58,472 nt of DNA from Microcoleus sp. FACHB-DQ6 (lineage in GTDB: Bacteria > Cyanobacteriota > Cyanobacteriia > Cyanobacteriales > Microcoleaceae). This document shows positions 24,205 to 37,996 of the stretch, piece after piece. Numbering within the stretch: position 1 is the first letter of the stretch; each line of letters starts with the position of its first letter. The stretch spans positions 1 to 58,472 of the forward strand of contig JACJNV010000381.1 in the NCBI GenBank assembly GCA_014695175.1. The letters are read 5' to 3'. The translations under genes and the position numbers were made by a program. The notes beneath the pieces were generated by a model, which was not told where the DNA came from, ran no database searches, and was given only the letters and a program-made list of their open reading frames with translations.

Positions 24205-24966
24205 TTACTTCACAGATGACATCCTCACCCTTACCAGAAAATCGCTAAGAGCAACCTTTGCATTAGGATTTGACGGCAAATGACTTGTAAAACTTGCATC
24301 TTCTAATATATTAATTAGCCGATCGCGCTCTTGCTGATAAAATTCTATATCTGTATCTTCCAGCACAGATTTTTCCTCTCCAGCCAGCTTGCGAGCGATC
24401 AAATCAGGAATATACGACAACTGGAACTTATCGTTAAGTTTCACCAAATTCGCCTCGACTTCCCCCGTTTGCATCAAGTGAATCCCAGCCAGCAACACCC
24501 GGTAAACGTACAGCAGCGGCTTAACCCGACGCGGGCGTTCTTTCTCAAATAATTTCCATTGAGTTTGAGCAAAACCGAGATAATGGTGGCTGTGGTGCTT
24601 GGTAATGCAGTTCGAGGCGATATCCTTTAATTCCTCGTGTTCCTTTGTACTGTAAACTATGAGCGGCGAATACAGTTGTTCTAGCACGTAGCCGTTGCGC
24701 TTCAACAGCATCTCAAAAAATTTCTTGATGTCGTGAGTTACTAAATCGAGTTGCATTCCTTCCCGAACTTCAGAAACTTCGATTGTTTCTTCTCCAGAAA
24801 TCAGTCCAATTACTTTCGGTAGCGGCAAAATGTGTACTCCCCGCAAGTCGAAGTCAGAATCTGCGGAAGGAAAGCCGTATAAGTGCGAACCGCTGACAGT
24901 CGCAAACAGCAGCGGATAAGGTTGAACGGAGATAATTGGGGCGAGATTCGAGATGTATTCTGTCAT
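24205..24966 (-). CDS. Nucleotidyltransferase superfamily protein (COG3541/RlaP-like)
   Basis: The 253-residue protein has the polymerase-beta-like nucleotidyltransferase signature GSHLYGFPSADSDFDLRG at residues 26-43, with the two catalytic acidic positions in DSDFD. Proteins of this group are close to RlaP, linked by genomic context elsewhere to RNA repair enzymes. The rest is helical with HHYLGFAQTQW and PLLYVYRVLLAG typical for the family. It is followed on the same strand by a second, larger member; the two are separated by about 120 bp. Function is otherwise unknown. Confidence 0.78.
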   Translation of the reverse strand: MTEYISNLAPIISVQPYPLLFATVSGSHLYGFPSADSDFDLRGVHILPLPKVIGLISGEETIEVSEVREGMQLDLVTHDIKKFFEMLLKRNGYVLEQLYSPLIVYSTKEHEELKDIASNCITKHHSHHYLGFAQTQWKLFEKERPRRVKPLLYVYRVLLAGIHLMQTGEVEANLVKLNDKFQLSYIPDLIARKLAGEEKSVLEDTDIEFYQQERDRLINILEDASFTSHLPSNPNAKVALSDFLVRVRMSSVK

Positions 24967-25025
24967 TTTTTCAACATTTTATCAATGCTAATTTCAATTC
25001 CGGTTAAACAATCGCAAATACCTGT

Positions 25026-25084
25026 AGGGGCGGGTTTTACCAACCATATATGTCTCAAATTAATGATCTCGTAAACCCGCCCCT
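25026..25084. repeat. Inverted repeat abutting a gene end
   Basis: AGGGGCGGGTTTTAC (25026-25040) matches GTAAACCCGCCCCT (25071-25084) as an imperfect inverted repeat with a 30-bp spacer and a T run after the right arm. It ends at the stop codon of the gene at 25086. It may act as a terminator or be a small dispersed repeat. Confidence 0.6.
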
Positions 25085-25085
25085 T

Positions 25086-26027
25086 TTAGCCGATCGCACC
25101 TCTACGAGATTTAATCAAAAATAGGTTCGCTTTCTCGTAATTAGGACGTTCTGGCAACTTAGTTGCAGCAAAAGCGCGATCGAACTCACCGTGCAAGCTC
25201 AACCGCCAGCGATTCACCTCTTCCCAGGATATTTCTTGGTTGCGGATAGATAAAAGTTGCGATCGATAATCCTGGACGCGAACAGGCACAAACCCCTCCT
25301 TGAGCACCGTAATTCCTGACAGCAACAAGCGAATTAAGTGCATCGCGTGCTTCCAACGAATTTCTCCGGTATTGCGGAGGTCTTGCTCCATTTTTTTAAA
25401 TTGAGACAAAACGTAGCTATTGTAAGTTTGATAAACCAATTGAGAAAGAAAGATTTCCCGAATTTCCAGCAATTCTTGTGCTACAGGAGAAAGTGTTTCT
25501 ACTAAAGGCGTGTACAAACATTCTAGTACATTTGGATTAGCTTTGAGTGCCAAAACTAAAAACTTTTGCAGTTCCCAATAGCATTCCTGATTTTCCTTGT
25601 TTTCCAATTGTTCTGGAATGCCGTAAAGCGACCAATGAAGTATTGCGGGCGGCAGGTAAATCCCGCGTCTGTCTGTATCAGATTGCTCGTTATCAAGACC
25701 GTAGGCTCTGGAACCAACAATACAGCGATAAATTACAGAATCATAGAGGTTGTATTCTGCGAGAAAATCTCCTCCTGACTGCAATCCTTCGCTCTGAAAC
25801 TGCTTGCGGATACTGAGTTCGTGCCGCCGCAGACTAACTTGTGTTCCGTCTGGGAGTTTGACTAAATATGCGTGGGAATTGTCCGTAGGCGATTGAACGA
25901 TGACACCTACTAATCCCGGTTTCCAAGATTGGTCGCCTGCGGGGTTTTTGACCTCTATTTTGGTGACAATTTGGGTTCCTGCGGGGATGATTAAGTTGAA
26001 ATTTTGAGGAATATTGGCATTTGCCAT
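25086..26027 (-). CDS. Nucleotidyltransferase superfamily protein with extra N-terminal domain
   Basis: From the ATG at 26027, which follows AGGAGG at correct spacing, the product is 313 residues. The nucleotidyltransferase core starts near residue 110 with IVGSRAYGLDNEQSDTDRRG (GS and the acidic D-x-D). The first about 100 residues form a separate beta-rich domain (PGLVGVIVQSP, VKLPDGTQVSLRRHEL) not present in its neighbour at 24205. The two are paralogues in tandem. An upstream ATG at 26087 would add 20 unconserved residues. Function is unknown; RNA or tRNA nucleotidyl transfer is an inference. Confidence 0.78.
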   Translation of the reverse strand: MANANIPQNFNLIIPAGTQIVTKIEVKNPAGDQSWKPGLVGVIVQSPTDNSHAYLVKLPDGTQVSLRRHELSIRKQFQSEGLQSGGDFLAEYNLYDSVIYRCIVGSRAYGLDNEQSDTDRRGIYLPPAILHWSLYGIPEQLENKENQECYWELQKFLVLALKANPNVLECLYTPLVETLSPVAQELLEIREIFLSQLVYQTYNSYVLSQFKKMEQDLRNTGEIRWKHAMHLIRLLLSGITVLKEGFVPVRVQDYRSQLLSIRNQEISWEEVNRWRLSLHGEFDRAFAATKLPERPNYEKANLFLIKSRRGAIG

Positions 26028-26137
26028 GAGGAAACCTCCTGCGGGGGCACGAGCTACAATATTAGTGTAGCGTAGGTGTAGTATCAATAAATGGGGTTGG
26101 GCGATCGGCTGTTTTAGCCTTGTTGAATATTGTCTAA

Positions 26138-26311: not shown

Positions 26312-28092
26312 ATGTCTAACAATAATGATGTCGTAATTCTCAAAAGTATTCTAGAAAGAAAAAGACAGGAATTAGCAAGTACATTATCACAAGATGAGTA
26401 TTTTGAGAGATTTACTTTTGAAGAACTGTTAAAAGACTACGATCTTTCATATGATGAGTTATTGTCTAATCAGGTTGATGGAAAAGATGATGGAGGAATC
26501 GATGGTTTTTTCATGTTTCTTAACAATGAAATTCTTAATAAAGACTTGGATTTGGCAAGTATAAAAAAGAACCCATTAATAGAAGTATATTTAATCCAAG
26601 CAAAGAGTTCATCTTCGTTTGGAGAAAAACCCATAGAGACCCTTATGGCTACTATAGAAGATATATTTGATTTAGGTAAAAATATTGCCGATATTAAAGA
26701 TTTTTATAATGCACAGGTTATAGAAAAAGTCGAATTATTTAGAAAAACATACCTTGACTTAGCCATTAAACATATTCAAGTGAAAATTACCTACGTATAT
26801 GCTAGTCAAGGTGATACTGAAAATATTCATATTAAGGTCAAAAATAAAGCGGACAATCTTTGTTCTAAAACCGAAAAATTTTTTACAGGCTGTGAGGTAA
26901 AGTTTGAATTCACAGGAGCCAGAGAACTACTAAAGAATACAAGGCAAGAAAAAACTTACTCTTTAAAATTAAAATTTCTGGAAAATTACATTTCTACAGA
27001 TGAAGATAATTATGTTGTTTTGACAAGATTAGATGAATACTATAATTTTGTAACTGATGAGGGCTCTTTACGCAAATATTTATTTGAGTCAAACGTTAGA
27101 GATTACCAAGGGAATGTAGAAGTCAATATAGATATCAAAAATACCCTTGCTTCAAAAGATACTGATATAGATTTCTGGTGGTTAAACAATGGGATAACCA
27201 TATTAGCTTCAAAAGCAACTATCGCAGGTAAAACCATTACACTCGATGATGTACAAATTGTGAATGGGTTACAAACAACTAACTCGATATATGAGTATAT
27301 GAACACTCTTGCAAAGGTTGATGATAAGAGAGCTATTCTTGTAAAGATAATAGTGGCAAACAAATTAGAAGCGAGAGATAGAATCATTAAAGCAACTAAT
27401 TTTCAAACTCCCGTTCCTGCTGCTTCTTTAAGAGCTACTGAACCTATTCAGCGTGATATAGAAGATTACTTTTTAAATAAGGATTGGTTCTACGATCGCC
27501 GCAAAAATTATTACAAGAATATTGGAAAACTTCTGAAAGAATAATTAGTATTCCTTATTTAGCTCAAGCAGTTACTTCCATTGTTCATCGGGAGCCACAT
27601 ATAGCTAGAGCCCGACCAACATCAATTATTAAAGGTGATACAAATTACAGCAGAGTTTTTAATTCTTTAATTCCAATGGAAGTTTATCTCTTTTGTGCAA
27701 AATTAATGAAGAATATTGAATTGTATATAAGAACTACAGATTTTTCAGCATTAACACAAAATAATACCAGTAGCTTATTAAGTTCTGGAACAATTCGGAT
27801 TTTAATATTTCATGTTGCAATGCTTTTTACTATTAAACTATTTAATAAAGTTAATTATACACAAAGAGATGTACTTTCAATCCTGCCAATTGAATTTGAC
27901 GATCATCAGGATTTGCTTCGTTCTGTAATTCTAGAAATAACTGAATTAACTAATAGTTATTTACAAACACCGCCCCCTCTTTCCATTAATACAGTAGCTA
28001 AGCGCTCTGACTTTACTACGTTTATTATTGAGAACGTACTAATTAAGCTTGAAAGTGTTTTGCGGCAATCTCAACTAGACGAGGAAGATTAA
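26312..28092 (+). pseudogene. AIPR-family abortive-infection protein, frameshifted
   Basis: The frame from ATG 26312 encodes 410 residues of the AIPR family (phage resistance, abortive infection), with LIQAKSSSSFGEKPI, DFWWLNNGITILA, QIVNGLQTTNS and NFQTPVPAASLRA. It then stops at 27542 because a run of four A at 27526-27529 seems to lack one base. The second frame, from about 27524 to 28092, continues with TSERIISIPYLAQAV and the rest of the family's C-terminus. Restored, the product would be about 595 residues, a usual length. The sequence is AT-rich with no GCGATCGC octamer. It is either a real disruption or a sequencing error. The stop overlaps the next gene's ATG. Confidence 0.85.
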
Positions 28093-28298
28093 TGCGTTAT
28101 GCTGTTGTAATTGAAAAAGGTGAAACTAGCTACGGTGCGTATATTCCCGATTTACCTGGATGTGTAGCTGTGGCTGAAAGTTTAGAAGAGGTGAGGAATT
28201 TAATTAAAGAGGCGATCGCATTTCATATTGAAGGACTACAAGAGGATGCTTTTCCTATTCCCGAACCTGTCTCTATTTGCGAATATGTTGAAGCTTAA
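28092..28298 (+). CDS. hicB: HicB-family antitoxin-like protein
   Basis: The 68-residue protein has the HicB fold pattern: VVIEKGETSYGAYIPDLPGC, then ESLEEVRNLIKEAIAFHIEG and PIPEP. The start overlaps the AIPR stop as TAATG, so the two were translated as one unit. No HicA toxin gene is visible next to it, so it may be an orphan or serve another partner. It contains a GCGATCGC octamer at 28211-28218, unlike the AIPR gene. Confidence 0.85.
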   Translation: MRYAVVIEKGETSYGAYIPDLPGCVAVAESLEEVRNLIKEAIAFHIEGLQEDAFPIPEPVSICEYVEA

Positions 28299-28301
28299 GA
28301 A

Positions 28302-28363
28302 GGTGACGGCGGTGGAAACCGCAGCTACACAAAATTTCGTCCCAGCAGAGGGGGACTAAGAAA
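28302..28363. repeat. Dispersed CTACACAAA/GGGGGACTAAG repeat, copy 1
   Basis: The sequence GGTGGAAACCGCAGCTACAC, later GCAGAGGGGGACTAAGAAA, closely matches 42823-42877 and, inverted, 55627-55662. It lies between hicB and the tRNA gene. Confidence 0.75.
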
Positions 28364-28377
28364 GAAAATAAATTCGA

Positions 28378-28449
<72 letters not shown>

Positions 28450-28574
28450 GCAGATAATTAAGATACCATACTAATTCCAAATTGGCAACTAAATTTTTCC
28501 TAAAAATTCAGCCGCTTGTTTCCGAGTTAAACTCGACACAATGCCAAGAATACAGGCATTTGTCGAGTCTGGCA

Positions 28575-28787
28575 TCAGTTAACCACCCACCAACCCGCCG
28601 CGGGGCCGACAAACCGCACTACCACCCACCAAGCCGCCAAAAGGCCAATCCCGATCCAGCTTCCGCGACTTGTCCACTTGACAAAATCTTGGCTTTGGGT
28701 TTTCGTGATTGGCAGCCAGGGAACAATGCGTTCTTCTTTACCGTATTCGTCGCCGATCGCCTCTTTGCGACGCTTAGATTCACCCAT
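28575..28787 (-). CDS. DUF2839 family membrane protein
   Basis: The 70-residue protein is a cyanobacterial DUF2839 member. The N-terminus MGESKRRKE and the PWLPITKTQSQDFVKWTSRG stretch (about 24-42) match the family, and residues about 43-62 form one membrane helix (GIGLLAAWWVVVRF). The function is unknown. The plus-strand frame across it (28482-28808) is not real. The protein likely sits in the thylakoid or cytoplasmic membrane. Confidence 0.85.
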   Translation of the reverse strand: MGESKRRKEAIGDEYGKEERIVPWLPITKTQSQDFVKWTSRGSWIGIGLLAAWWVVVRFVGPAAGWWVVN

Positions 28788-28852
28788 AATCTTTGTCTAC
28801 TAAATTAGATTTCAACTGGATACCTAACCAAATTATACGCCAACAGGTCATC

Positions 28853-30361
28853 TCAAGCCTGCGTCAGCCAAGTCGTATCCAAATAATCAATCCTCGCAAA
28901 AGGACTCAAAGCCGCTAAAACCTGCTGTCCGTAACTGCGGTGAATCACCCGGCTGTCGAAAATCGCCACCACCCCTTGACGTTCTCGCACAGGCGCGATC
29001 GCCCGTTGCAATTCATTCAGCGCCGCCGGCAGCAAATACAACCGAAACCAATCCTTGCGCCGTTCCTTATAATAAGCCACACGCGCCGTCACCAAAGGAT
29101 TCTCCAAAGAAGGTAGCGGCAAAGTTGCGATCGCCAGCAAGTGAGGCGCCCTAAATTCCCCCTGATGTTCCCGCCAAAACTCCCACCCAGTCACCAAAAT
29201 CGCATTCTCGCCCACATCTGTTTTTTCTACCTGCACCCGAGAACCGAACTCAGAAGCCAAAATCGCCGCCAGCCGAGCCCTCAGCGGTACATCACCAACA
29301 ATCAGCACCGTTAAACCCGCCACCGACGCGCTCATCAACAGCAAAGTCCGAATTTCTTCTATTAAAACACCCTGAAATTCCGGCGTATTTGGCAGTGGCA
29401 GCCAGTTGGGAATGTACAGTTGAATTAATTCGCTTTGTCGATCGGGCGAAAACTTAACGCTCGTCAATTCTGGAAGCCCCAACATTTCCCGGAAAATCGG
29501 AGCCTTGGGTTCCACATCCACCGCCCCGCCAATCAACACCATCGGCTGATCGTCCCAAATTTTGCTCAAAACCTCAGCCACCTGAACCGGCGCGCAGTAC
29601 AGAGAAAATGACCCCGCCTCCCGATGAATTTCCGCCCACCGCAGTTTTCCGTTGGTTTCCCACCGCTGCCAAAAATTGCTCCAAGCAGCCGGAATTAGGG
29701 GGTTTGGCTCGATGGTTTCAAACAGCCCCTTCAAAATATTTTGCTCTGCAGTTTCCAGCAAATAGCACTCCTCTGGTTTCGCCGGATGCCGAAAGAAAGC
29801 CCGCGTTAGCAGTACCCGCCCTTGGAGGATTGCATCGGCTTCCAAAGGCAGAGATTGCATTAAATCATTCCAGTCAGCCGGTTGCAAACACGCCGTCAAT
29901 TGCTGGCGCGTCCAAACTTCCAAGTCATCCACACCGTCAATAATTGTCGGAATATTGCTGTGAAGTTGCGAATTCGCCGCCAAGCGAGCCGCCAGCCAAG
30001 ACTCGGGATCTGCTAGCATCAATCCTCGTCCAGTGGCATTATCGGAATAAGTCTCGATCGGCTTATCAGTTTGCAGCCACTCTTGCAAGCGCGGAATTTC
30101 CACCGCCTGCAAATGTTCCAGCAGCGGTATCGGCGCCACCAAAATCACAGGTTCCGGCCACATCAAAACCGGCATCAAATAGCTGACTCGATACCGCTGT
30201 CGGTAAGCTCCAGCCGGAAGCCCCGTTTGGATCAGAGCGCTGCGCCCCAAGCGCAAAGCCCGCGCCACGAGCCGCGCCATCGTTAAATGGTGCGGCCAGT
30301 GCGGCTCGGAGTTCGATCGCAGGAAGCGGAGCAATGAGTTGTGGACTTCTACCTCAATCAA
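28853..30361 (-). CDS. DinG-like helicase-fold protein with degenerate ATP site
   Basis: The 502-residue protein resembles cyanobacterial DinG-type DNA helicases. The C-terminus has the helicase C2 segment GVVAIFDSRVIHRSYGQQV (about 466-484). The P-loop position reads GLPAGAYR (about 47-54) instead of GxxxxGKT, and the DEAH position reads DGVD (142-145). Both ATPase motifs are therefore degenerate and catalysis is doubtful, although fold and length fit. It lies upstream of the pentapeptide genes but in the opposite-to-divergent arrangement only by chance, with all of these on the minus strand. A role in DNA metabolism is inferred. Confidence 0.72.
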   Translation of the reverse strand: MIEVEVHNSLLRFLRSNSEPHWPHHLTMARLVARALRLGRSALIQTGLPAGAYRQRYRVSYLMPVLMWPEPVILVAPIPLLEHLQAVEIPRLQEWLQTDKPIETYSDNATGRGLMLADPESWLAARLAANSQLHSNIPTIIDGVDDLEVWTRQQLTACLQPADWNDLMQSLPLEADAILQGRVLLTRAFFRHPAKPEECYLLETAEQNILKGLFETIEPNPLIPAAWSNFWQRWETNGKLRWAEIHREAGSFSLYCAPVQVAEVLSKIWDDQPMVLIGGAVDVEPKAPIFREMLGLPELTSVKFSPDRQSELIQLYIPNWLPLPNTPEFQGVLIEEIRTLLLMSASVAGLTVLIVGDVPLRARLAAILASEFGSRVQVEKTDVGENAILVTGWEFWREHQGEFRAPHLLAIATLPLPSLENPLVTARVAYYKERRKDWFRLYLLPAALNELQRAIAPVRERQGVVAIFDSRVIHRSYGQQVLAALSPFARIDYLDTTWLTQA

Positions 30362-30383
30362 TCGGTTTTAAAATTGACATTTC

Positions 30384-31913
30384 TCACTCAACATAATCAA
30401 AACTGGCCAGAAAATCAACTACTTTTTGACCGAGAGGCAAACTGAATTTACTCTCCTGATGAGTTGCACCTCCCTTCCCAAAATTTCCGTGAGAATTCAC
30501 CGTCAAACTCTCCTGTCCCGAACTAATTAAAATAGTTTGGGTAGGTGACTCAAAAAACTTTGTTTTCCGATCTACCATTGGCATAGTAGAAAGCAAATAT
30601 ATCAAGTTATTTAAATTATCCCTCGCTGCACTCAATGCTTTACACAACTGCACAATCCGTTTTTTATCCAAATTTTGACTGGCGATATTTTTGCTAACAG
30701 CCACAATATTTTCCTGAGTTTGTACAGCATCCTTAAAAGGAACAATCGCTAAAAAAGCTGCTGCCAATAAATGCTCGTCGCCATCAAATTTAAAAGTGAG
30801 AATTGTCCGGCGGTAGCCAACTTCAATATTGGGAGGACAGCTCATTGCATGGTAATGCTGAGCTATTTCGCTGTAAGCGGTTGCTAAAAAGATGTTTGCT
30901 GAGTGATCTAAAAGTGCATCAACCACAATTCGCACTAACCCGGGCGTGCGATTTAAAAATTTTCTCGATTCTGACGGCGAATTAAATTGTTGAATCTGAG
31001 TGAGATCGCCGGCCGAGCTGATGTCAACCCACTGGCAAGTAATATCATCTGCGATGATGCCAAATCGGGGAACCAAATACAGTTTTGCCCCAGTTAAATT
31101 GGCTCCCCTCAAATCAGCGCCCACCCAATCTGCATTAATCAAATTAGTTTCAGTCAAATCAGCGTGAACCAAACTAGCATTTGCTAAATTAGTATTTCTT
31201 AAATCTGCTCCGTTGAGGTTGGCTCCGCTGAATTTAGAATCGCTCAGATCGGCACCGTTGAGGTTAGCTCCGCTCAAATCAGCCCATTTGAGATTAGCTC
31301 CGCTCAAATCGGCACCGCTGAGATTCACCTGCTGCAAAGAAGCTTGTCTCATATCGGCATTGCTTAAATTGACGCCGCTAAGTTCTGCTTTCGCCAAATC
31401 CGCGCCGTGCAAGTTAGCTCCTTGAAAGTTAGCTGAAGAAGCCGAAGCACCTCTGAGATTAGCACCCGAAAGATTAGCACCGGAAAGATTTGCTTCCGTC
31501 AGTTTTACCTCTCTTAAATCTGCTTCAGTCAGGTTTGCGCCGGTGAAGTTAGTTTTGCTGAGTTCGCAGCGGACTAATTCGCTTCTAATCAGGGATGCTC
31601 CGATTAATTGAGCTCCACTTAAATCAGCTCTCACTAAGTTTGCTACGTTGATAGTAGCCCCGTTTAAGATTGCCCGCGAAAGATTAGTGCTACTGAGTCT
31701 CGCCACATTCAGGTTAGCTTCGCTCAAGTTAGCGTCGCTCAAGTTAGCGCCGCTGAGGTTGGTTACAAATAAGCTAGCCCGCCTTAAAATTGATTGGCTG
31801 AGGTTGATGCGGCTGAGATTAGCTTCATTCAGGTTGATTCCTGTGAAATCTCTGTCACCTTCTGTGTATCTCTTGACGAGTGCAAATCGTTTGAGCAGTT
31901 CTTCAGCTTGCAT
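30384..31913 (-). CDS. Pentapeptide-repeat protein C (third of three paralogues)
   Basis: The 509-residue protein starts with the shared motif MQAEELLKRF and EGDRDFTGINLNEANLSRI. About 50 pentapeptide repeats of the A(N/D)LSx type (about residues 20-280) form a right-handed quadrilateral beta-helix. A shared C-terminal region (about 285-509) follows, with ITCQWVDIS, IEVGYRRTILTFK and SPTQTILISS. The same C-terminal domain occurs in the two upstream paralogues. Gaps of 81 bp and 96 bp and the same strand suggest one operon. The role is unknown. Confidence 0.85.
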   Translation of the reverse strand: MQAEELLKRFALVKRYTEGDRDFTGINLNEANLSRINLSQSILRRASLFVTNLSGANLSDANLSEANLNVARLSSTNLSRAILNGATINVANLVRADLSGAQLIGASLIRSELVRCELSKTNFTGANLTEADLREVKLTEANLSGANLSGANLRGASASSANFQGANLHGADLAKAELSGVNLSNADMRQASLQQVNLSGADLSGANLKWADLSGANLNGADLSDSKFSGANLNGADLRNTNLANASLVHADLTETNLINADWVGADLRGANLTGAKLYLVPRFGIIADDITCQWVDISSAGDLTQIQQFNSPSESRKFLNRTPGLVRIVVDALLDHSANIFLATAYSEIAQHYHAMSCPPNIEVGYRRTILTFKFDGDEHLLAAAFLAIVPFKDAVQTQENIVAVSKNIASQNLDKKRIVQLCKALSAARDNLNNLIYLLSTMPMVDRKTKFFESPTQTILISSGQESLTVNSHGNFGKGGATHQESKFSLPLGQKVVDFLASFDYVE

Positions 31914-31993
31914 TTTTTTTACTTGAATGAAATGGCAATTTGCTAACTTTTATATGGCATGAATAGAAATGATATCAAATTAATTTATAGTAT

Positions 31994-33556
31994 TTACTCA
32001 CCGAGCTGATAAAAGCTTTTGACAAACTCAATGACCGTATTTAGCGGCGGCGTGGTAAATCTTTGGGCTTTAATTCCAGGACTGATAGACGTTTTGTTGA
32101 CTCCGGGCAAATTTGTCAAGTTTCTGCCAAAATCTGGGTGATAGTGAATCATCAAAGTTTCGGCGCTGGAGTTAGCCAGTACAGTTTGGGTAGGCGATTG
32201 GAAAAAACTTGACATCGGTTCGCGATCGAGGCGAATCGGCTGAATTTTCATTTCCCCTATTTTTCTCATTGCTTTGGTCAGGGCTACGTTTAATTGCACT
32301 ACCATATTTGAGACTCTGACGCCCAGATTATTACCACTTTGGGGTTGAATCATCTTGATCAGAGTAATCAAATTTTTCTGAGTAAATGCTGCATCACTAA
32401 AGGGAATAATCGCAACGAAAGCTGTGGGAAATAGTTCCTCGTCCTGCTCTATTTTAAATGATATGATTGTGCGTCTGGAATTAACTTCGATACTGGGAGG
32501 ATGGCTCAAACCAGGGTATTGACGGGCAATTTGGCGGTAGGTAGCTGCCAGGACAAAGTTAGCATCGGGGTCGAGGGGTCGATCGACAATAATTTGAACT
32601 GTCGGTGGTGTAGCATTGAAAAACCTTTGAGATTCTTCTGGGGTAAAGCGCTGAATGTGGCTGCGATCGCCGTTAGGACTGAGGTCAACCCAATCGCAGG
32701 TAATGTCATCTGCTTTGACATCAAACCTAGACACCGCGTAAATTTTTGCCCCCGTCAGGGCCGCCCCCGTCAAATCTGCGCCCACCCAATCAGCGTGAAT
32801 CAAATTCGCTTGAGTCAAATCCGCGTGTACCAGAGTAGCGTTCAACAGATTGACATTGCTCAAATTTGCCCCGTACAAGTTGGCCCCGCTCAATCTCGCT
32901 TCATCGAGGTCAGCACCGCTCAGGTTCGCTCCGCTGAGGTCAGCCCACCGGAGATTAGCGCCTCGCAAGTCAGCGCCACTGAGGTTTGCCTGAGACAGAT
33001 TAGCTTGTCTGAGTTCGGCATTGCAGAGGTTGACTCCTCGCAAGTCTGCCCTGCTGAGGTCGGCTCTGTGCAAGTTGGCCCGTTCCAAGTTGGCCGCTAT
33101 TAGGGAAGCGCCTCTCAGGTGAGCCCCGCTGAGGTCGGCTTGCTCTAGATTGGCTTCTCTGAGGGTTGCTTCTCTCAAATCTGCTTCGCTGAGATTTGCA
33201 CCGGTCAAGTTTGCACTGCTGAGGTCGGCTCTGATCAGTTCGGATCTGATCATTGTAGCTTCGACGAGTTGGGCTTCTCTGAGGTCGGCTCGAATCAAGT
33301 TTGCCACGTTGAGGATAGCGCCGCTGAGGTTGGCTTTGTAGAGATTGGCACCGCTGAGTCTGGCAACATTGAGTTTGGCTTTTCTCATGTTGGCGTTGGA
33401 CAAATTGGTGCCACTCATGTTAGTCAGGCTCAAGATTGCCTCACTGAAATTAGCCCCGCTGAGATCGATCCTGCTGAGATTTGCCTCGCAAAGCAGGATG
33501 GCAGTAAAGTCTCTTTCTCCTGCGGCATATTTGGTGATGAGTTCTTGGGCATCCAT
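31994..33556 (-). CDS. Pentapeptide-repeat protein B
   Basis: From the ATG at 33556 the 520-residue product starts MDAQELITKYAAGERDFTA, matching the N-termini of its two paralogues; the longer frame from 33607 adds 17 residues not shared by them. Pentapeptide repeats (about 20-285) and the C-terminal domain (ITCDWVDLSPNGD, IEVNSRRTIISFK, SPTQTVLAN) follow. It lies between the paralogues at 30384 and 33653. A long opposite-strand frame is a shadow of the repeat composition. Confidence 0.85.
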   Translation of the reverse strand: MDAQELITKYAAGERDFTAILLCEANLSRIDLSGANFSEAILSLTNMSGTNLSNANMRKAKLNVARLSGANLYKANLSGAILNVANLIRADLREAQLVEATMIRSELIRADLSSANLTGANLSEADLREATLREANLEQADLSGAHLRGASLIAANLERANLHRADLSRADLRGVNLCNAELRQANLSQANLSGADLRGANLRWADLSGANLSGADLDEARLSGANLYGANLSNVNLLNATLVHADLTQANLIHADWVGADLTGAALTGAKIYAVSRFDVKADDITCDWVDLSPNGDRSHIQRFTPEESQRFFNATPPTVQIIVDRPLDPDANFVLAATYRQIARQYPGLSHPPSIEVNSRRTIISFKIEQDEELFPTAFVAIIPFSDAAFTQKNLITLIKMIQPQSGNNLGVRVSNMVVQLNVALTKAMRKIGEMKIQPIRLDREPMSSFFQSPTQTVLANSSAETLMIHYHPDFGRNLTNLPGVNKTSISPGIKAQRFTTPPLNTVIEFVKSFYQLGE

Positions 33557-33652
33557 GCTTTTCAATTTCCCTGATGTGTTAGCTAGAACAAAGCTTTGTT
33601 GTGCCAACCTTTAAACTAGAATAAGCATTTTTTGTAACTTGATGCAATATGC

Positions 33653-35215
33653 CTAGACATCTATATTGTGGAAGCCTTTTATAAAATCCAAAATGCTAGT
33701 GATATTAGCTTGACCTAATTTTGTGCTTTCGGCTAACTTACCCGAGGTTGAGTTGCTCGGCTCGTATTTTTTAATCAGGCGCTTGCCGAAGCCTGGGTGG
33801 TGATATACGCTGAGTCTTTGGTCGCGCGAATTAATTAAGATCATCTGTGTAGGAATCTGAAAAAAATTGATGCTTTCGCCGATTTTTGGAAAAGAACTGG
33901 AAATTTTGATTTGGTCTACTTTGCTAATAGCTTGGTTGAGAGCTTTGCTGCATAACTGGACGTGTTTAGATTCTTTGACGTTAAGCTTGCCTGCATCGTG
34001 AGATTGAATCATTTTCATCAAAGCGATCAGGTTTTTTTGAGTGATGGCGGCGTCGTTAAAAGGAATGATGGCAACGTAAGCGGTGGCAAATAATTTATCG
34101 TCGCTGTCCATTTTAAAGGCGAGTACGGTGCGCCTGGAGCTGACTTCGATCGTGGGAGGCTGACTTAAACTCGGGTATTGTTGGGCAATTTGGTAATAAG
34201 TTGCAGCTAGGGCAAAATGAGCGCCTTGATCTAAGGGCGAGTCAATCACAATCCGAACTGTGGGCAAGGTTTCGTGAAAAAATTCGTGGGTTCCTCCGGA
34301 GTTCAACCAGTAAATTTGGCTGTGGTCGCCGTTGGGGCTCAGATCGACCCACTTGCAGGTCATGCCTTCGGTTTTGATGCCTAGCCGCGAAACTGCGTGG
34401 AGTTTGGCTCCGGTTAAGGTGGCTCCGGTTAAGTCGGCTCCAATCCAGTCGGCGCGGATCAGATAGGCATTTGTCAGGTCGGCGTGAACTAAACTGGCAT
34501 TTGACAGGTCGGCGTGACAGAGGTCGGCTCGGCTGAGGTCGGCACCGCTCAATTTGGCTTCGCTCAGGTCGGCCCAGCGGAGATTGCAGCCGCTGAGGAT
34601 TGCCCAGCGCAAATTGACGCCGCTGAGGTCGGCGCCGCTGAGTACGGCTTGAGTCAGGTTGGCTTGTCTCAGTTCTGTGCCTCGCAAGTCTGCGCCGCTG
34701 AGGTCGGCTCGGCTGAGGTCGGCGCCTTGGAGGTTGGCTTGTTCGAGGTTGGCTTCTGTCAAGCACGCGCCACTGAGATGAGCGCCTCGAAGGTTGGCTT
34801 GAGCGAGGTTGGCTCCTCGAAGGGTCGCTTCGGTGAGGGTGGCGCCGCTGAGGTTTGCGCCGCTGAGGTTTGCGCCGCTGAGTTCGGCTCGAATGAGTTC
34901 GGCTCTGATCAGTTTCGCTCCTATCAGTATGGCTTTTTTGAGGTCAACTCGCACTAGGTAAGCGACGTTGAGGTCGGCGTCGGTGAGGTCGGCGCCGCCT
35001 AGATGGGCGCCACTGAGTCTGGCAATGTTGAGTTTGGCACCGATGAGGTTGGTTTTGCTGAGGTTGGCTCCGCTCAGGTTTGCTACACTCAGATTCGCAC
35101 CCTTGAGGTTGGCTCCGCTCAAGTTGACGCCGCTGAGGTTGGCCTCAGTCAGGTTGATTCCGGCAAAGTTTCTTTCTCCGGCGGCATATTTTTTCAGGAG
35201 TTCCTCGACTGTCAT
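33653..35215 (-). CDS. Pentapeptide-repeat protein A (first of three)
   Basis: The 520-residue product opens MTVEELLKKYAAGERNFAGI. Pentapeptide repeats run from about residue 20 to 285; the C-terminal region has MTCKWVDLSPNGDHSQIY, IEVSSRRTVLAFK and FFQIPTQMILINS. It is the first gene of the cluster, and its ATG lies only 38 bp from the divergent tyrA ATG at 35254. Conserved position and order support a gene-family expansion by tandem duplication. Possible activities such as DNA mimicry or antirestriction are not supported by a specific motif. Confidence 0.85.
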   Translation of the reverse strand: MTVEELLKKYAAGERNFAGINLTEANLSGVNLSGANLKGANLSVANLSGANLSKTNLIGAKLNIARLSGAHLGGADLTDADLNVAYLVRVDLKKAILIGAKLIRAELIRAELSGANLSGANLSGATLTEATLRGANLAQANLRGAHLSGACLTEANLEQANLQGADLSRADLSGADLRGTELRQANLTQAVLSGADLSGVNLRWAILSGCNLRWADLSEAKLSGADLSRADLCHADLSNASLVHADLTNAYLIRADWIGADLTGATLTGAKLHAVSRLGIKTEGMTCKWVDLSPNGDHSQIYWLNSGGTHEFFHETLPTVRIVIDSPLDQGAHFALAATYYQIAQQYPSLSQPPTIEVSSRRTVLAFKMDSDDKLFATAYVAIIPFNDAAITQKNLIALMKMIQSHDAGKLNVKESKHVQLCSKALNQAISKVDQIKISSSFPKIGESINFFQIPTQMILINSRDQRLSVYHHPGFGKRLIKKYEPSNSTSGKLAESTKLGQANITSILDFIKGFHNIDV

Positions 35216-35253
35216 GGGGGCGGCACCGTATCAAATATCCCCATTTTATTGCT

Positions 35254-36093
35254 ATGAATATCGGTATTGTAGGACTGGGTTTAATTGGCGGCTCGATCGG
35301 GCTGGATTTGCGATCGCGCGGGTTTAATGTTTTTGGGGTTTCCAGTCGGCTGCAGACTTGCTCTCGGGCGCAAGCTCGCGGTGTTGTCAATGAAGCCAGC
35401 ATACACCTGTCTCTAATGGCAGCAGCCGATGTAGTTTTTATTTGCACGCCGATCGGCTCGATCGAGCCGATCGTCCGAGAGTTGGTGCCCTATCTTTCCC
35501 GGGATACTATTGTAACGGATGTCGGTTCCGTAAAAACACCCATAGTGCAGGCTGTGTCTTCTCTGTGGCCGAACTTTGTCGGGGGACACCCGATGGCGGG
35601 GACTGCTGAAAGCGGAATCGAGGCGGCGGTGCCGGATTTGTTTGTCGGGCGGCCTTACGTGGTGACGCCGACTCCCCAGACGCCGGCGCTTGCGGTGGAT
35701 AAGGTTGAGGAAATTGCGCGGTTGCTGGGTGCGTCGGTTTACCGATGTGAGCCGGAAGAACACGATCGAGCTGTGGCTTGGATTTCTCATTTGCCGATCG
35801 TGGCGAGCGCGACGCTGGTTGCTGCGTGCGATCGAGAGGGCGATCGGGATATTGTTACTTTAGCCCAACATTTGGCGAGTTCGGGTTTTCGGGACACGAG
35901 CCGCGTTGGCGGCGGCAATCCCGAGCTGGGAGTAATGGTGGCAAAGTACAATCGAGAGGAATTGTTGCGATCGCTCTCTATTTACCGCGACAGTCTCGAC
36001 GAGTTCATCAGCGATATTGAAGCCGAAAATTGGCAAGATCTAGAACAAAAGCTGAAACTGACTCAAAAAGCGAGAGAGAATTACAACTTATGA
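35254..36093 (+). CDS. tyrA: Prephenate/arogenate dehydrogenase
   Basis: The 279-residue protein is TyrA, acting in tyrosine synthesis. The NADP-type loop is GLGLIGGSIG at 6-15; ICTPIGSIEPIV, TDVGSVKTPI, GGHPMAGTAESG and AWISHLPI follow, the His in this last block being the catalytic-type residue. In cyanobacteria TyrA usually prefers arogenate; the sequence does not settle that. The ATG at 35254 is 38 bp from the divergent pentapeptide gene. Confidence 0.95.
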   Translation: MNIGIVGLGLIGGSIGLDLRSRGFNVFGVSSRLQTCSRAQARGVVNEASIHLSLMAAADVVFICTPIGSIEPIVRELVPYLSRDTIVTDVGSVKTPIVQAVSSLWPNFVGGHPMAGTAESGIEAAVPDLFVGRPYVVTPTPQTPALAVDKVEEIARLLGASVYRCEPEEHDRAVAWISHLPIVASATLVAACDREGDRDIVTLAQHLASSGFRDTSRVGGGNPELGVMVAKYNREELLRSLSIYRDSLDEFISDIEAENWQDLEQKLKLTQKARENYNL

Positions 36094-36160
36094 GCCAAAA
36101 ATTACTTAAAACGGTTCCCGTCTAGATTATGATTTGTGGACGCCTATATATTGAGTTTCA

Positions 36161-37996
36161 ATGTACGCTTATTCTCGACTCAAGCGATTTTTACTGGGTG
36201 AATCTCTCCCCACTAGCGCATCGGTTCACGAACGGCTAAGCAACGCTGCTGGACTAGCTGTTCTGGCTTCCGATGCACTTTCGTCTGTTGCCTACGCTAC
36301 TCAAGAAACTCTGCTCGTGCTATTACTAGCGGGGAGTAGCAGTTTGAGTTTATCGCTGCCTATTTCTGGAATTATTATTTTACTGTTGGCGATCGTGGCG
36401 CTGTCTTACCGACAGACAATTAAAGCGTACCCCAACGGCGGCGGTGCTTACATTGTAGCGCGAGAAAATTTAGGTATTTATCCCGGTTTGATCGCAGCAG
36501 CTTCGCTGATGATTGACTACATTTTAACTGTAACAGTGAGTATTTCGGCTGGCGTTGCGGCCTTGACTTCAGCATTTCCATCACTGCAACCGTATACAGT
36601 GGAACTGTGCTTATTTTTTATTGTCTTAGTCATGTTTGCCAATCTCAGGGGCGTGCGGGAATCTGGCAATATATTTATGGTTCCTACCTATGCTTTTATC
36701 GTGGTAATTTTTATTTTGATTGGCACGGGTTTATATCAACAGGCAACAGGTCACGTTTTGCCGACCTTAGAAAATATTCCGGCTAAGGAACCTTTGGGAT
36801 TATTTCTGCTGGCGCGCGCCTTTGCGGCGGGCTGTACGGCCCTGACAGGAGTTGAAGCCATATCAGACGGGGTGTTGGCTTTTAAGCCTCCTGAATGGAA
36901 AAATGCGAGCCTGACTTTGACCTATATGGGGGTAATTCTGGGAGTGATGTTTGTGGGAATTAGTTATTTGGGTAATATTTATCATGTGATTCCTAGCGAA
37001 CATGAAACGCTCCTTTCTGTGTTGGGAAAACAGATTTTTGGGGTCGGTATATTTTATTACTATTTGCAGGCAGCAACTCTGTTAATTTTGCTGTTGGCGG
37101 CAAATACGAGTTATGCGGATTTTCCCCGACTTTGTTATTTTTTGGCGCGGGACGGGTTTTTGCCCAGGCAATTGTCGCTGTTGGGCGATCGACTGGTTTA
37201 TTCTAATGGCATTAATCTGCTCAGCTTCTGCGCTGCTCTTTTAATTATCATCTTTCGAGGCAATACGAGTGCGGTGCTTCCCCTGTATGCGGTGGGAGTT
37301 TTCACTTCTTTTACTCTCTCCCAATTGGGAATGGTAATTCACTGGTTTAAGGAACGAGGTAAAGGTTGGCAAGTTAGTGCTGTGATGAACGGTATTGGTG
37401 CACTGGCAACAACGGGAGTTTTGGCTGTAATTCTAGCTACAAAATTCCTTTTGGGAGCTTGGGTTGTCGTAGTAACTATTCCGATCGTAGTCAGTCTATT
37501 TTTAGCTATTCACCGACACTATCGGTATGTCGCGGCTCGGTTGAGCATTCAGGGAATAGAACCGAGGTCTTATCTTCGCAGACCTAGAGTTAAGACGGTG
37601 ACACATCCGGCAGTGGTGTTAGTCGGGCAATTGCACCGGGGAACTTTCGAGGCCCTTGATTACGCTCGTTTAATTGCTGATGAAGTTGTGGCAGTTCACG
37701 TAGATATTGGTTTGACCGATCGAGAGAAATTACAATTAGCTTGGAAAGATTTGCAGTCAGATATTCCTTTGGAAATTCTGGAATCGCCTTACCGTTCTGT
37801 TGGTGAGGCTTTGACTCACTTTTTGACTTTGTTTGAAGAGCAGCGACCGGGAGTATATTTAACGCTGATCATTCCGGCTTTTGTGACGCGAAATTGGTGG
37901 GAGGGACTGCTGCACAATCAAACTGCTTTCTTTTTGAAAGCGGCTTTGCGGGCTAAAAAAAGTCGGGTTGTAACAACGGTTAGATATTATCTTTAA
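36161..37996 (+). CDS. kimA: KimA/YdaO-like APC-family permease (potassium importer)
   Basis: The 611-residue protein has about 12 membrane helices in the first 430 residues and a soluble C-terminal tail. It closely resembles Bacillus KimA (YdaO), a K+ importer of the APC superfamily controlled by c-di-AMP, in LSSVAYATQETLLVLLLAG, SYRQTIKAYPNGGGAYIVA, SAGCTALTGVEAIS-like AAGCTALTGVEAISDGV, and in the tail FLKAALR. The role in K+ uptake is an inference from the family. It follows tyrA by 67 bp on the same strand, so read-through is possible. Confidence 0.85.
   Translation: MYAYSRLKRFLLGESLPTSASVHERLSNAAGLAVLASDALSSVAYATQETLLVLLLAGSSSLSLSLPISGIIILLLAIVALSYRQTIKAYPNGGGAYIVARENLGIYPGLIAAASLMIDYILTVTVSISAGVAALTSAFPSLQPYTVELCLFFIVLVMFANLRGVRESGNIFMVPTYAFIVVIFILIGTGLYQQATGHVLPTLENIPAKEPLGLFLLARAFAAGCTALTGVEAISDGVLAFKPPEWKNASLTLTYMGVILGVMFVGISYLGNIYHVIPSEHETLLSVLGKQIFGVGIFYYYLQAATLLILLLAANTSYADFPRLCYFLARDGFLPRQLSLLGDRLVYSNGINLLSFCAALLIIIFRGNTSAVLPLYAVGVFTSFTLSQLGMVIHWFKERGKGWQVSAVMNGIGALATTGVLAVILATKFLLGAWVVVVTIPIVVSLFLAIHRHYRYVAARLSIQGIEPRSYLRRPRVKTVTHPAVVLVGQLHRGTFEALDYARLIADEVVAVHVDIGLTDREKLQLAWKDLQSDIPLEILESPYRSVGEALTHFLTLFEEQRPGVYLTLIIPAFVTRNWWEGLLHNQTAFFLKAALRAKKSRVVTTVRYYL

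What the first reader, a model, noticed from the sequence alone, without database searches (positions are those of the whole stretch)
30384..35215. Three tandem pentapeptide-repeat paralogues with a shared C-terminal domain
All three begin with the same short motif (EELL or QELI, then GERDF/GDRDF) and end with an about 220-residue region I cannot name, with conserved CKWVDLS, RRT and SPTQTILI patterns. A beta-helix tied to a conserved unknown domain, copied three times, may be a functional unit.
Basis: partly seen in the sequence, partly recalled or inferred. Interest (0 to 1): 0.6.

Follow-up and report, generated by a model that had tools for sequence, protein, structure and literature searches.

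The report
Fixed-length pentapeptide-repeat rods, unnamed tail domain
Three neighbouring genes in a Microcoleus-like cyanobacterium make a stiff rod of almost never-varying length ending in a domain that standard family libraries do not name, a protein kept in many large-genome cyanobacteria but with no known job.

Summary
Three tandem minus-strand genes (A 33653-35215, B 31994-33556, C 30384-31913) encode a pentapeptide-repeat beta-helix plus a homologous C-terminal region of about 230-250 residues (B and C 38-44% identical to A) without a Pfam family or PDB sequence match. The region occurs in 61 of 386 genomes of the phylum, 3 of them with broken pieces only. In 62 of 62 ORFs examined it follows the beta-helix, at a distance of exactly 273 residues in 61. 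AlphaFold2 models a rod of about 13 coils, a cap, and a ferredoxin-like domain with an inserted helical hairpin. The copies are old positional paralogues; A and B are under strong purifying selection, while the end domain of C changes fast. tyrA lies divergently upstream within 6 kb in 56 of 60 loci. Two adjacent rod faces are more conserved, so I read it as a soluble fixed-length binding scaffold with unknown partners. Co-occurrence with HetR (59 of 61) is largely clade-confounded: a control gene overlaps HetR in 51 of 69 genomes, 51 of 55 within the class. HetL-like, TRADD-N and gyrase-mimic readings gained no support. New variant of a known kind; function open.

The parts
33653..35215 (-). 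paralogue A (copy 1): 520 aa; N-cap helix 3-11, pentapeptide beta-helix of about 13 coils (about residues 16-271), cap (about 272-305), alpha/beta domain with helical hairpin (about 316-480), tail
31994..33556 (-). paralogue B (copy 2): 520 aa, same architecture; ATG start chosen over the TTG at 33607
30384..31913 (-). paralogue C (copy 3): 509 aa, same architecture, extra 6 residues in the N-cap, shorter and fast-evolving C-terminal domain
33653..34399 (-). C-terminal region of A (no Pfam family)
31994..32740 (-). C-terminal region of B
30384..31079 (-). C-terminal region of C
35216..35253 (.). 38-base gap between the divergent start codons of A and tyrA
35254..36093 (+). tyrA (prephenate dehydrogenase family), divergent upstream neighbour within 6 kb in 56 of 60 loci
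28853..30361 (-). DinG/YoaA-like protein, helicase motifs I and II not recognisable by eye; 22 bases after C if the TTG at 30361 is its start; downstream on the same strand in 30 of 60 loci

Best explanation
A family of soluble two-part scaffold proteins ('PRP-C', my label) of large-genome, mostly filamentous cyanobacteria. Part one is a rigid pentapeptide beta-helix of about 13 coils whose length hardly ever changes and whose two adjacent conserved faces form the main docking surface for a partner (inferred). Part two, set at a fixed distance, is a cap plus a ferredoxin-like alpha/beta domain with a helical hairpin that binds a second partner or ligand (inferred). One ancestral gene near tyrA was inherited mainly vertically and lost in some lineages. 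Tandem duplication gave three positional paralogues in the Microcoleus lineage, of which A and B keep strong constraint while the end domain of C has diverged. Shown by computation: architecture, spread, locked length, face bias, paralogy, selection. Inferred: docking, two partners, scaffold role, cytosolic place (no signal peptide or membrane segment seen by eye).
For: Domain in 61 of 386 genomes by a 3-row profile and in the same 61, plus 2 marginal hits at E 0.006 and 0.01, by a 38-row profile. In 62 ORFs from 41 sources all carry the repeat in front; F17 to W289 is exactly 273 residues in 61 of 62. AlphaFold2 full-length model: mean pLDDT 85.8, a strand every 5 residues over the rod; residues 273-312 rise from block pLDDT 39-56 in the isolated domain to 71-89 on the rod. 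Exposed positions of two adjacent faces are more conserved than the rest (one-sided permutation p 0.0021 and 0.0048, four faces tested). Purifying selection: dN/dS 0.05-0.10 for the parts of A, 0.06-0.15 for B, 20 sequences each. Tree: copies 1 and 2 form starred positional clades, copy 3 a clade at 91/100, with Kamptonema and USR001 copy 3 apart.
Against: No partner, expression or mutant data. The permutation test treats positions as independent. pLDDT of residues 482-502 is below 50. A constant length could come from folding or capping rather than from a ruler function. The length lock has one exception (L091: 258). The 41 sources are my choice, not all positives.
Confidence: 0.5

Rival explanations
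1. HetL-like regulator: the rod binds HetR and shields it from PatS-type peptides, in non-heterocystous filaments too.
For: B aligns with HetL from residue 2. HetL binds HetR, and one more Nostoc repeat protein, All4303, does so about two-fold more weakly (passages and section 11 of PMC7476756). 59 of 61 PRP-C genomes carry HetR_C.
Against: HetL D151, whose change to Ala impaired HetR binding, aligns with S151 of B, and the family consensus there is Ser; a register slip of 5 is possible in repeats. 2 of 61 genomes (G131, G229) have PRP-C without HetR, and 21 of 80 HetR genomes lack PRP-C. Control family RlaP overlaps HetR in 51 of 69 genomes, 51 of 55 within the class, so the link is largely clade.
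Confidence: 0.12
2. Bacterial TRADD-N adaptor of a conflict/apoptosis system: the C-terminal domain is a diverged TRADD-N (RRM-like) domain beside pentapeptide repeats.
For: Kaur et al. report cyanobacterial TRADD-N linked to pentapeptide repeats (PMC7159879 section 34; PMC8195603 section 9). The modelled core is beta-alpha-beta-beta-alpha plus strands. Fast evolution of C's end domain.
Against: The tiny-Ser motif of the beta2-beta3 turn is not kept: Ser at 360 in 20 of 62, while R361 is in 62 of 62. PF13820 (NCOA6_TRADD-N): 47 of 59 genomes show a weak match at E up to 1, none over the cut-off, and the one match of the own genome is on another contig. Domain order is reversed: the paper places the repeats typically C-terminal. 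No PADLOC match for A, B, C at E up to 0.01. A and B are strongly purified.
Confidence: 0.08
3. Regulator tied to aromatic amino acid metabolism: the ferredoxin-like domain senses a ligand (ACT- or PII-like) and the gene is co-regulated with divergent tyrA.
For: tyrA divergent upstream within 6 kb in 56 of 60 loci; start codons 38 bases apart here; aroF downstream on the other strand in 14 of 60. VIA lists PII chains (Z 4.1) and an aspartate kinase chain (Z 4.0).
Against: Z under 8 may mean only a common arrangement, by the tool's own note. The gene is absent from 325 of 386 genomes. Spacing to tyrA, measured in 38 of 61 sources, ran from 31 to 894 bases and is larger in some (about 2.5 kb in L039), so no fixed shared promoter. 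25 of the 60 loci are close relatives.
Confidence: 0.12
4. Gyrase/DNA-mimic protein of the Qnr/MfpA type, or part of a nucleic-acid machine with the DinG-like neighbour.
For: Same repeat fold; DinG/YoaA-like gene downstream on the same strand in 30 of 60 loci.
Against: Rod is nearly neutral (median net charge -3 over 269 residues, range -12 to 7, 62 ORFs). NCBIfam Qnr and MfpA models far below cut-off. The neighbour lacks recognisable Walker A and DEAH motifs by eye, and was not found within 6 kb in 19 of the 22 DUF1517-type loci.
Confidence: 0.06

Closest known systems
HetL (All3740) and NCBIfam penta_HetL / penta_Alr5209
   Same: Same N-terminal cap motif and long pentapeptide beta-helix; B residues 2-231 align with HetL; bit scores above the Alr5209-family cut-off
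   Different: HetL is a single-domain repeat protein of 237 aa; PRP-C has a longer, length-locked rod and an extra 230-250 aa domain; HetR-contact Asp not kept; below the penta_HetL cut-off (173-200 of 260 bits)
Bacterial TRADD-N proteins with pentapeptide repeats (Kaur et al. 2020, 2021)
   Same: Cyanobacterial, RRM/ferredoxin-like core next to pentapeptide repeats
   Different: Order of domains reversed, key Ser motif not conserved, no effector domain found
PatL (All0521) of Nostoc PCC 7120
   Same: Repeat protein of similar size (496 aa) in a filamentous cyanobacterium
   Different: Its repeats are at the C-terminus (passages of PMC3566145); its sequence was not compared here
Qnr / MfpA
   Same: Repeat-five-residue beta-helix
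   Different: Lack this C-terminal domain (recalled); rod here nearly neutral, their strong acidity is recalled

Membership tests
[quoted passage not shown]
   PF00805 E 5e-81 to 4e-96 for A, B, C; about 51 repeats in register
Pentapeptide repeat protein superfamily (PF00805) | right-handed four-sided beta-helix | tested here: inconclusive
   predicted model only: strand every 5 residues, block pLDDT 87-98 over residues 1-270; handedness not examined
HetL (penta_HetL NF047416) | score above the curated cut-off of 260 bits | tested here: not met
   194.1 (A), 200.4 (B) and 173.3 (C) bits
HetL (penta_HetL NF047416) | Asp151 that contacts HetR | tested here: not met
   Ser in B and in the consensus at that position; register shifts by 5 are possible in repeats
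Alr5209 family (NF052603) | score above the curated cut-off of 125 bits | tested here: met
   200.5, 191.9, 173.7 bits, but summed over 4 stretches of a 113-position repeat model
Alr5209 family (NF052603) | short repeat-only protein (129 aa, passage of PMC8145042) | tested here: not met
   509-520 aa with an extra domain
Bacterial TRADD-N | tiny-Ser motif in the beta2-beta3 turn | tested here: not met
   position 360 Ser in 20 of 62; 361 Arg in 62 of 62
Bacterial TRADD-N | RRM-like four-stranded sheet with two helices | tested here: inconclusive
   model has a comparable core with an insertion; the VIA rows settle nothing
Bacterial TRADD-N | profile match | tested here: inconclusive
   no PF13820 match over cut-off in 59 genomes; a bacterial TRADD-N profile was not available
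Qnr/MfpA gyrase inhibitors | NCBIfam Qnr/MfpA cut-off | tested here: not met
   84.6 of 240 and 82 of 360 bits for A
Qnr/MfpA gyrase inhibitors | gyrase inhibition or protection | not testable with these tools
   needs an assay

The most novel reading that the evidence does not exclude
PRP-C is a dedicated molecular ruler of filamentous cyanobacteria: a rod whose length has been held across several families of the class sets a fixed distance between a partner along its conserved faces and one at its end domain, and the Microcoleus lineage runs three tandem versions side by side, one of them (C) with a rapidly changing end domain that swaps targets.
Probability: 0.12. Interest if true: 0.7.

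Novelty: new variant of a known kind. Interest (0 to 1): 0.42.

Why it matters
Nostoc PCC 7120 alone carries 31 pentapeptide genes besides hetL, and the biochemical job of such proteins is almost wholly unknown (PMC8145042). Here a widely shared family at a largely conserved locus, with a locked length, a defined conserved surface and a domain without a family model, gives a clean handle: orthologues can be named, mutants designed and partners sought. The domain deserves a family model of its own.

Tried and rejected
Pfam and PDB sequence searches of the C-terminal region gave nothing usable. Foldseek against PDB gave no match at E below 0.001; the top rows were cytochrome bc1 core subunits at E about 0.01 with TM-scores near 0.2. 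VIA-align best Z 5.4 (phage SAM lyase 6zm9), then zinc-protease-type chains, designed ferredoxin folds, PII, NIPSNAP: read only as a common ferredoxin-like arrangement; TRADD-N chains were not among the 50 rows shown. Foldseek of the full model against viral proteins: 45 matches at E up to 0.001, the named ones mostly pentapeptide-repeat, beta-helix or phage tail proteins. Viral contigs: 28 pattern matches, none a relative. PADLOC: no match for A, B, C. PF13820 in 59 genomes: none over cut-off. HetR co-occurrence looked striking until the RlaP control. Promoter and terminator scan: counts near the shuffled level. Rfam over 28000-36500: one tRNA only.

Papers: searches. No listed title, abstract start or passage that I read describes this domain; this says nothing beyond those searches. 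Seen: PMC8195603 (passages, section 9), PMC7159879 (passages, section 34), PMC7476756 (passages, section 11), PMC8145042 (passages, section 28), PMC3566145, PMC4365693, PMC5862535, PMC2821919 (passages). Liu and Wolk 2011 (PMC3194894) is not held.

Full report
What is there. The window belongs to a Microcoleus-like cyanobacterium: among the named loci found, the nearest is Microcoleus sp. FACHB-61, 99% identical over the end region of A. Three genes run on the minus strand, A 33653-35215, B 31994-33556 and C 30384-31913, with gaps of 96 and 80 bases, followed 22 bases on by a DinG/YoaA-like gene (28853-30361, if its TTG is the start). Upstream and divergent is tyrA (35254-36093); 38 bases separate its start codon from that of A. 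Each protein is about 51 pentapeptide repeats followed by a region of 248, 248 and 231 residues. The end regions of B and C are 44% and 40% identical to A's, and no further copy was found in the 98% complete own genome, although that genome has many other pentapeptide stretches (185 PF00805 matches, with 150 of 366 candidates scored).

Is the end domain known? A's region gave 0 Pfam families at E up to 10, and the 38 members together 27 scattered names (best E 0.0029). NCBIfam was run on the whole proteins only; best stretches all end by residue 291. PDB sequences: 0 at E up to 10. So I found no family model for it.

How far does it reach? A 3-row profile finds it in 61 of 386 genomes of the phylum sample (39 of 142 genera). 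A 38-row profile finds the same 61 plus two marginal hits at E 0.006 and 0.01. Three of the 61 (G153, G334, G385) hold only broken pieces. In six more (G091, G101, G157, G215, G255, G262) one match contains a stop codon; I did not look into these. The pattern scan of named genomes gave 40 loci, all cyanobacterial by title: Microcoleus, Tychonema, Kamptonema, Oscillatoria, Lyngbya, Plectonema, Calothrix, Scytonematopsis, Spirirestis, Chlorogloeopsis, a Leptolyngbyaceae MAG and others. That these are filamentous or multicellular genera is recalled. The genomes of the 386-genome sample are unnamed, so their shape is not known. Viral contigs gave none.

Architecture is locked. From 41 sources (the window, 20 of the 40 named-collection loci, and 20 stretches that I chose among the unnamed positive genomes) 62 ORFs carry the domain. 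The 20 named loci left out are mostly close Microcoleus relatives, plus L063 and L073; ORFs under 150 aa were dropped. All 62 have the repeat in front. The distance from the N-cap Phe (17) to Trp 289 is 273 residues in 61 of 62; L091 has 258. Relatives in the 38-row full-length alignment are 48-89% identical to A, so this is not trivial sameness.

Models. The isolated domain gave mean pLDDT 75, the full protein 85.8 with pTM 0.62. The rod shows a strand every five residues from 16 to about 271 behind an N-cap helix 3-11. Residues 273-312 have block pLDDT 39-56 in the isolated domain but 71-89 on the rod, so they look like its cap; they hold Cys287, Trp289, Asp291, Ser293 and Asp297, present in 62 of 62. 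The core after it (strand 319-324, helix 330-346, strands 355-358 and 363-368, helix 372-382, helical hairpin 389-433, strands 456-461 and 467-472) I read as a ferredoxin-like sandwich with an insertion. Fold comparisons support no closer kinship. Other polar residues kept in at least 57 of 62 are D325, Y340, R361, R362, T363, D372 and D388.

Surface. Sorted by face of the rod, exposed positions on two adjacent faces are more conserved than the rest (difference about 0.4 bit; one-sided permutation p 0.0021 and 0.0048; the other two faces p 0.99 and above). The permutation ignores neighbour correlation and four faces were tested. Conserved positions on these faces include N63, V64, N83, V84, R89, R104, E106, R109, R183, R203, W204 and H244. 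The rod is nearly neutral in charge.

Paralogues. The tree of the 62 end domains puts copies 1 and 2 of the window in starred clades with the same positional copies of Tychonema, Kamptonema and other Oscillatoriales relatives (100/98 and 100/99). Copy 3 forms a Microcoleus/Tychonema clade (91/100, not starred), with Kamptonema and USR001 copy 3 in a separate one. Several branches elsewhere are long and unsure. So the triplication is old, not fresh. In 20 sequences per copy (19 loci plus window), dN/dS is 0.05-0.10 over the parts of A and 0.06-0.15 over those of B. For C it is 0.17 in the rod, 0.19 in the cap, and 0.30, 0.51 and 0.61 in core, hairpin and tail. These are ratios of mean pairwise values, not a site test; relaxed constraint and diversifying selection are not separated.

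Neighbours. Of 60 loci (L034-L093), tyrA lies upstream and divergent within 6 kb in 56. The exceptions are L063, L073, L086 and L089; in L073 and L086 the gene sits at a contig end. A DinG-like gene is downstream on the same strand in 30, DUF1517 and a lipoprotein gene each in 22, aroF on the other strand in 14. 25 of the 60 (L034-L058) are close relatives, at least 81% identical to A's domain or another copy's best segment, so these counts are not independent; but tyrA also adjoins in family codes f4, f6, f10, f15, f19, f22, f26 and f29. Spacing from start codon to start codon, picked by pattern, could be measured in 38 of 61 sources and ran from 31 to 894 bases.

HetR. HetR_C is in 80 of 386 genomes; 59 of the 61 PRP-C genomes have it (Fisher p 6e-49, which ignores phylogeny). 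As a control I ran RlaP (PF10127): 69 genomes, 51 with HetR, or 51 of 55 leaving out the 14 labelled 'same phylum' only. The control takes away much of the weight of the association. HetL's HetR-contact Asp151 is not kept. I therefore do not claim a HetR link.

Mechanism. Best supported is a soluble scaffold with a long docking surface and a second binding domain at a fixed distance. Steps shown: constant architecture, one-sided conservation, selection, a cap that is confident only on the rod. Steps inferred: existence and identity of partners, cytosolic place, joint transcription of A, B and C. TRADD-N was taken seriously because Kaur and colleagues describe cyanobacterial TRADD-N linked to pentapeptide repeats, but its marker Ser is found in only 20 of 62, the domain order is reversed and no profile match over cut-off was seen.

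Verdict. Real, widely conserved, no family model found, function open: a new variant of a known kind. Interest 0.42.

Noticed in passing
28853-30361 (-): DinG/YoaA-like protein (PADLOC typeIV_DinG E 2e-41) in which Walker A and DEAH are not recognisable by eye; the relative in L090 looks the same, suggesting a conserved pseudo-helicase near PRP-C in 30 of 60 loci.
   Followed up: partly
26312-28092 (+): AbiU-like abortive infection gene (AIPR domain) split over two overlapping frames: profile positions 1-387 in the first ORF, 387-534 in the second. Looks interrupted here.
   Followed up: partly
28378-28449 (-): tRNA-Val (cac) just after the AbiU-like gene, a possible insertion spot.
   Followed up: no
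24205-26087 (-): Two adjacent RlaP-type nucleotidyltransferase genes, about 220 bases before the AbiU-like gene; two RlaP matches side by side on the PRP-C contig recur in the 6 other same-genus genomes of the sample.
   Followed up: no
G153, G334, G385 and L072: Broken copies of the gene in three genomes of family code f6 and in a Calothrix MAG (L072, could be an assembly error), consistent with repeated loss.
   Followed up: partly
22 loci between L059 and L088: A DUF1517 protein and an Arg/Ser-rich lipoprotein without a Pfam family follow PRP-C on the same strand.
   Followed up: partly
   Followed up: partly
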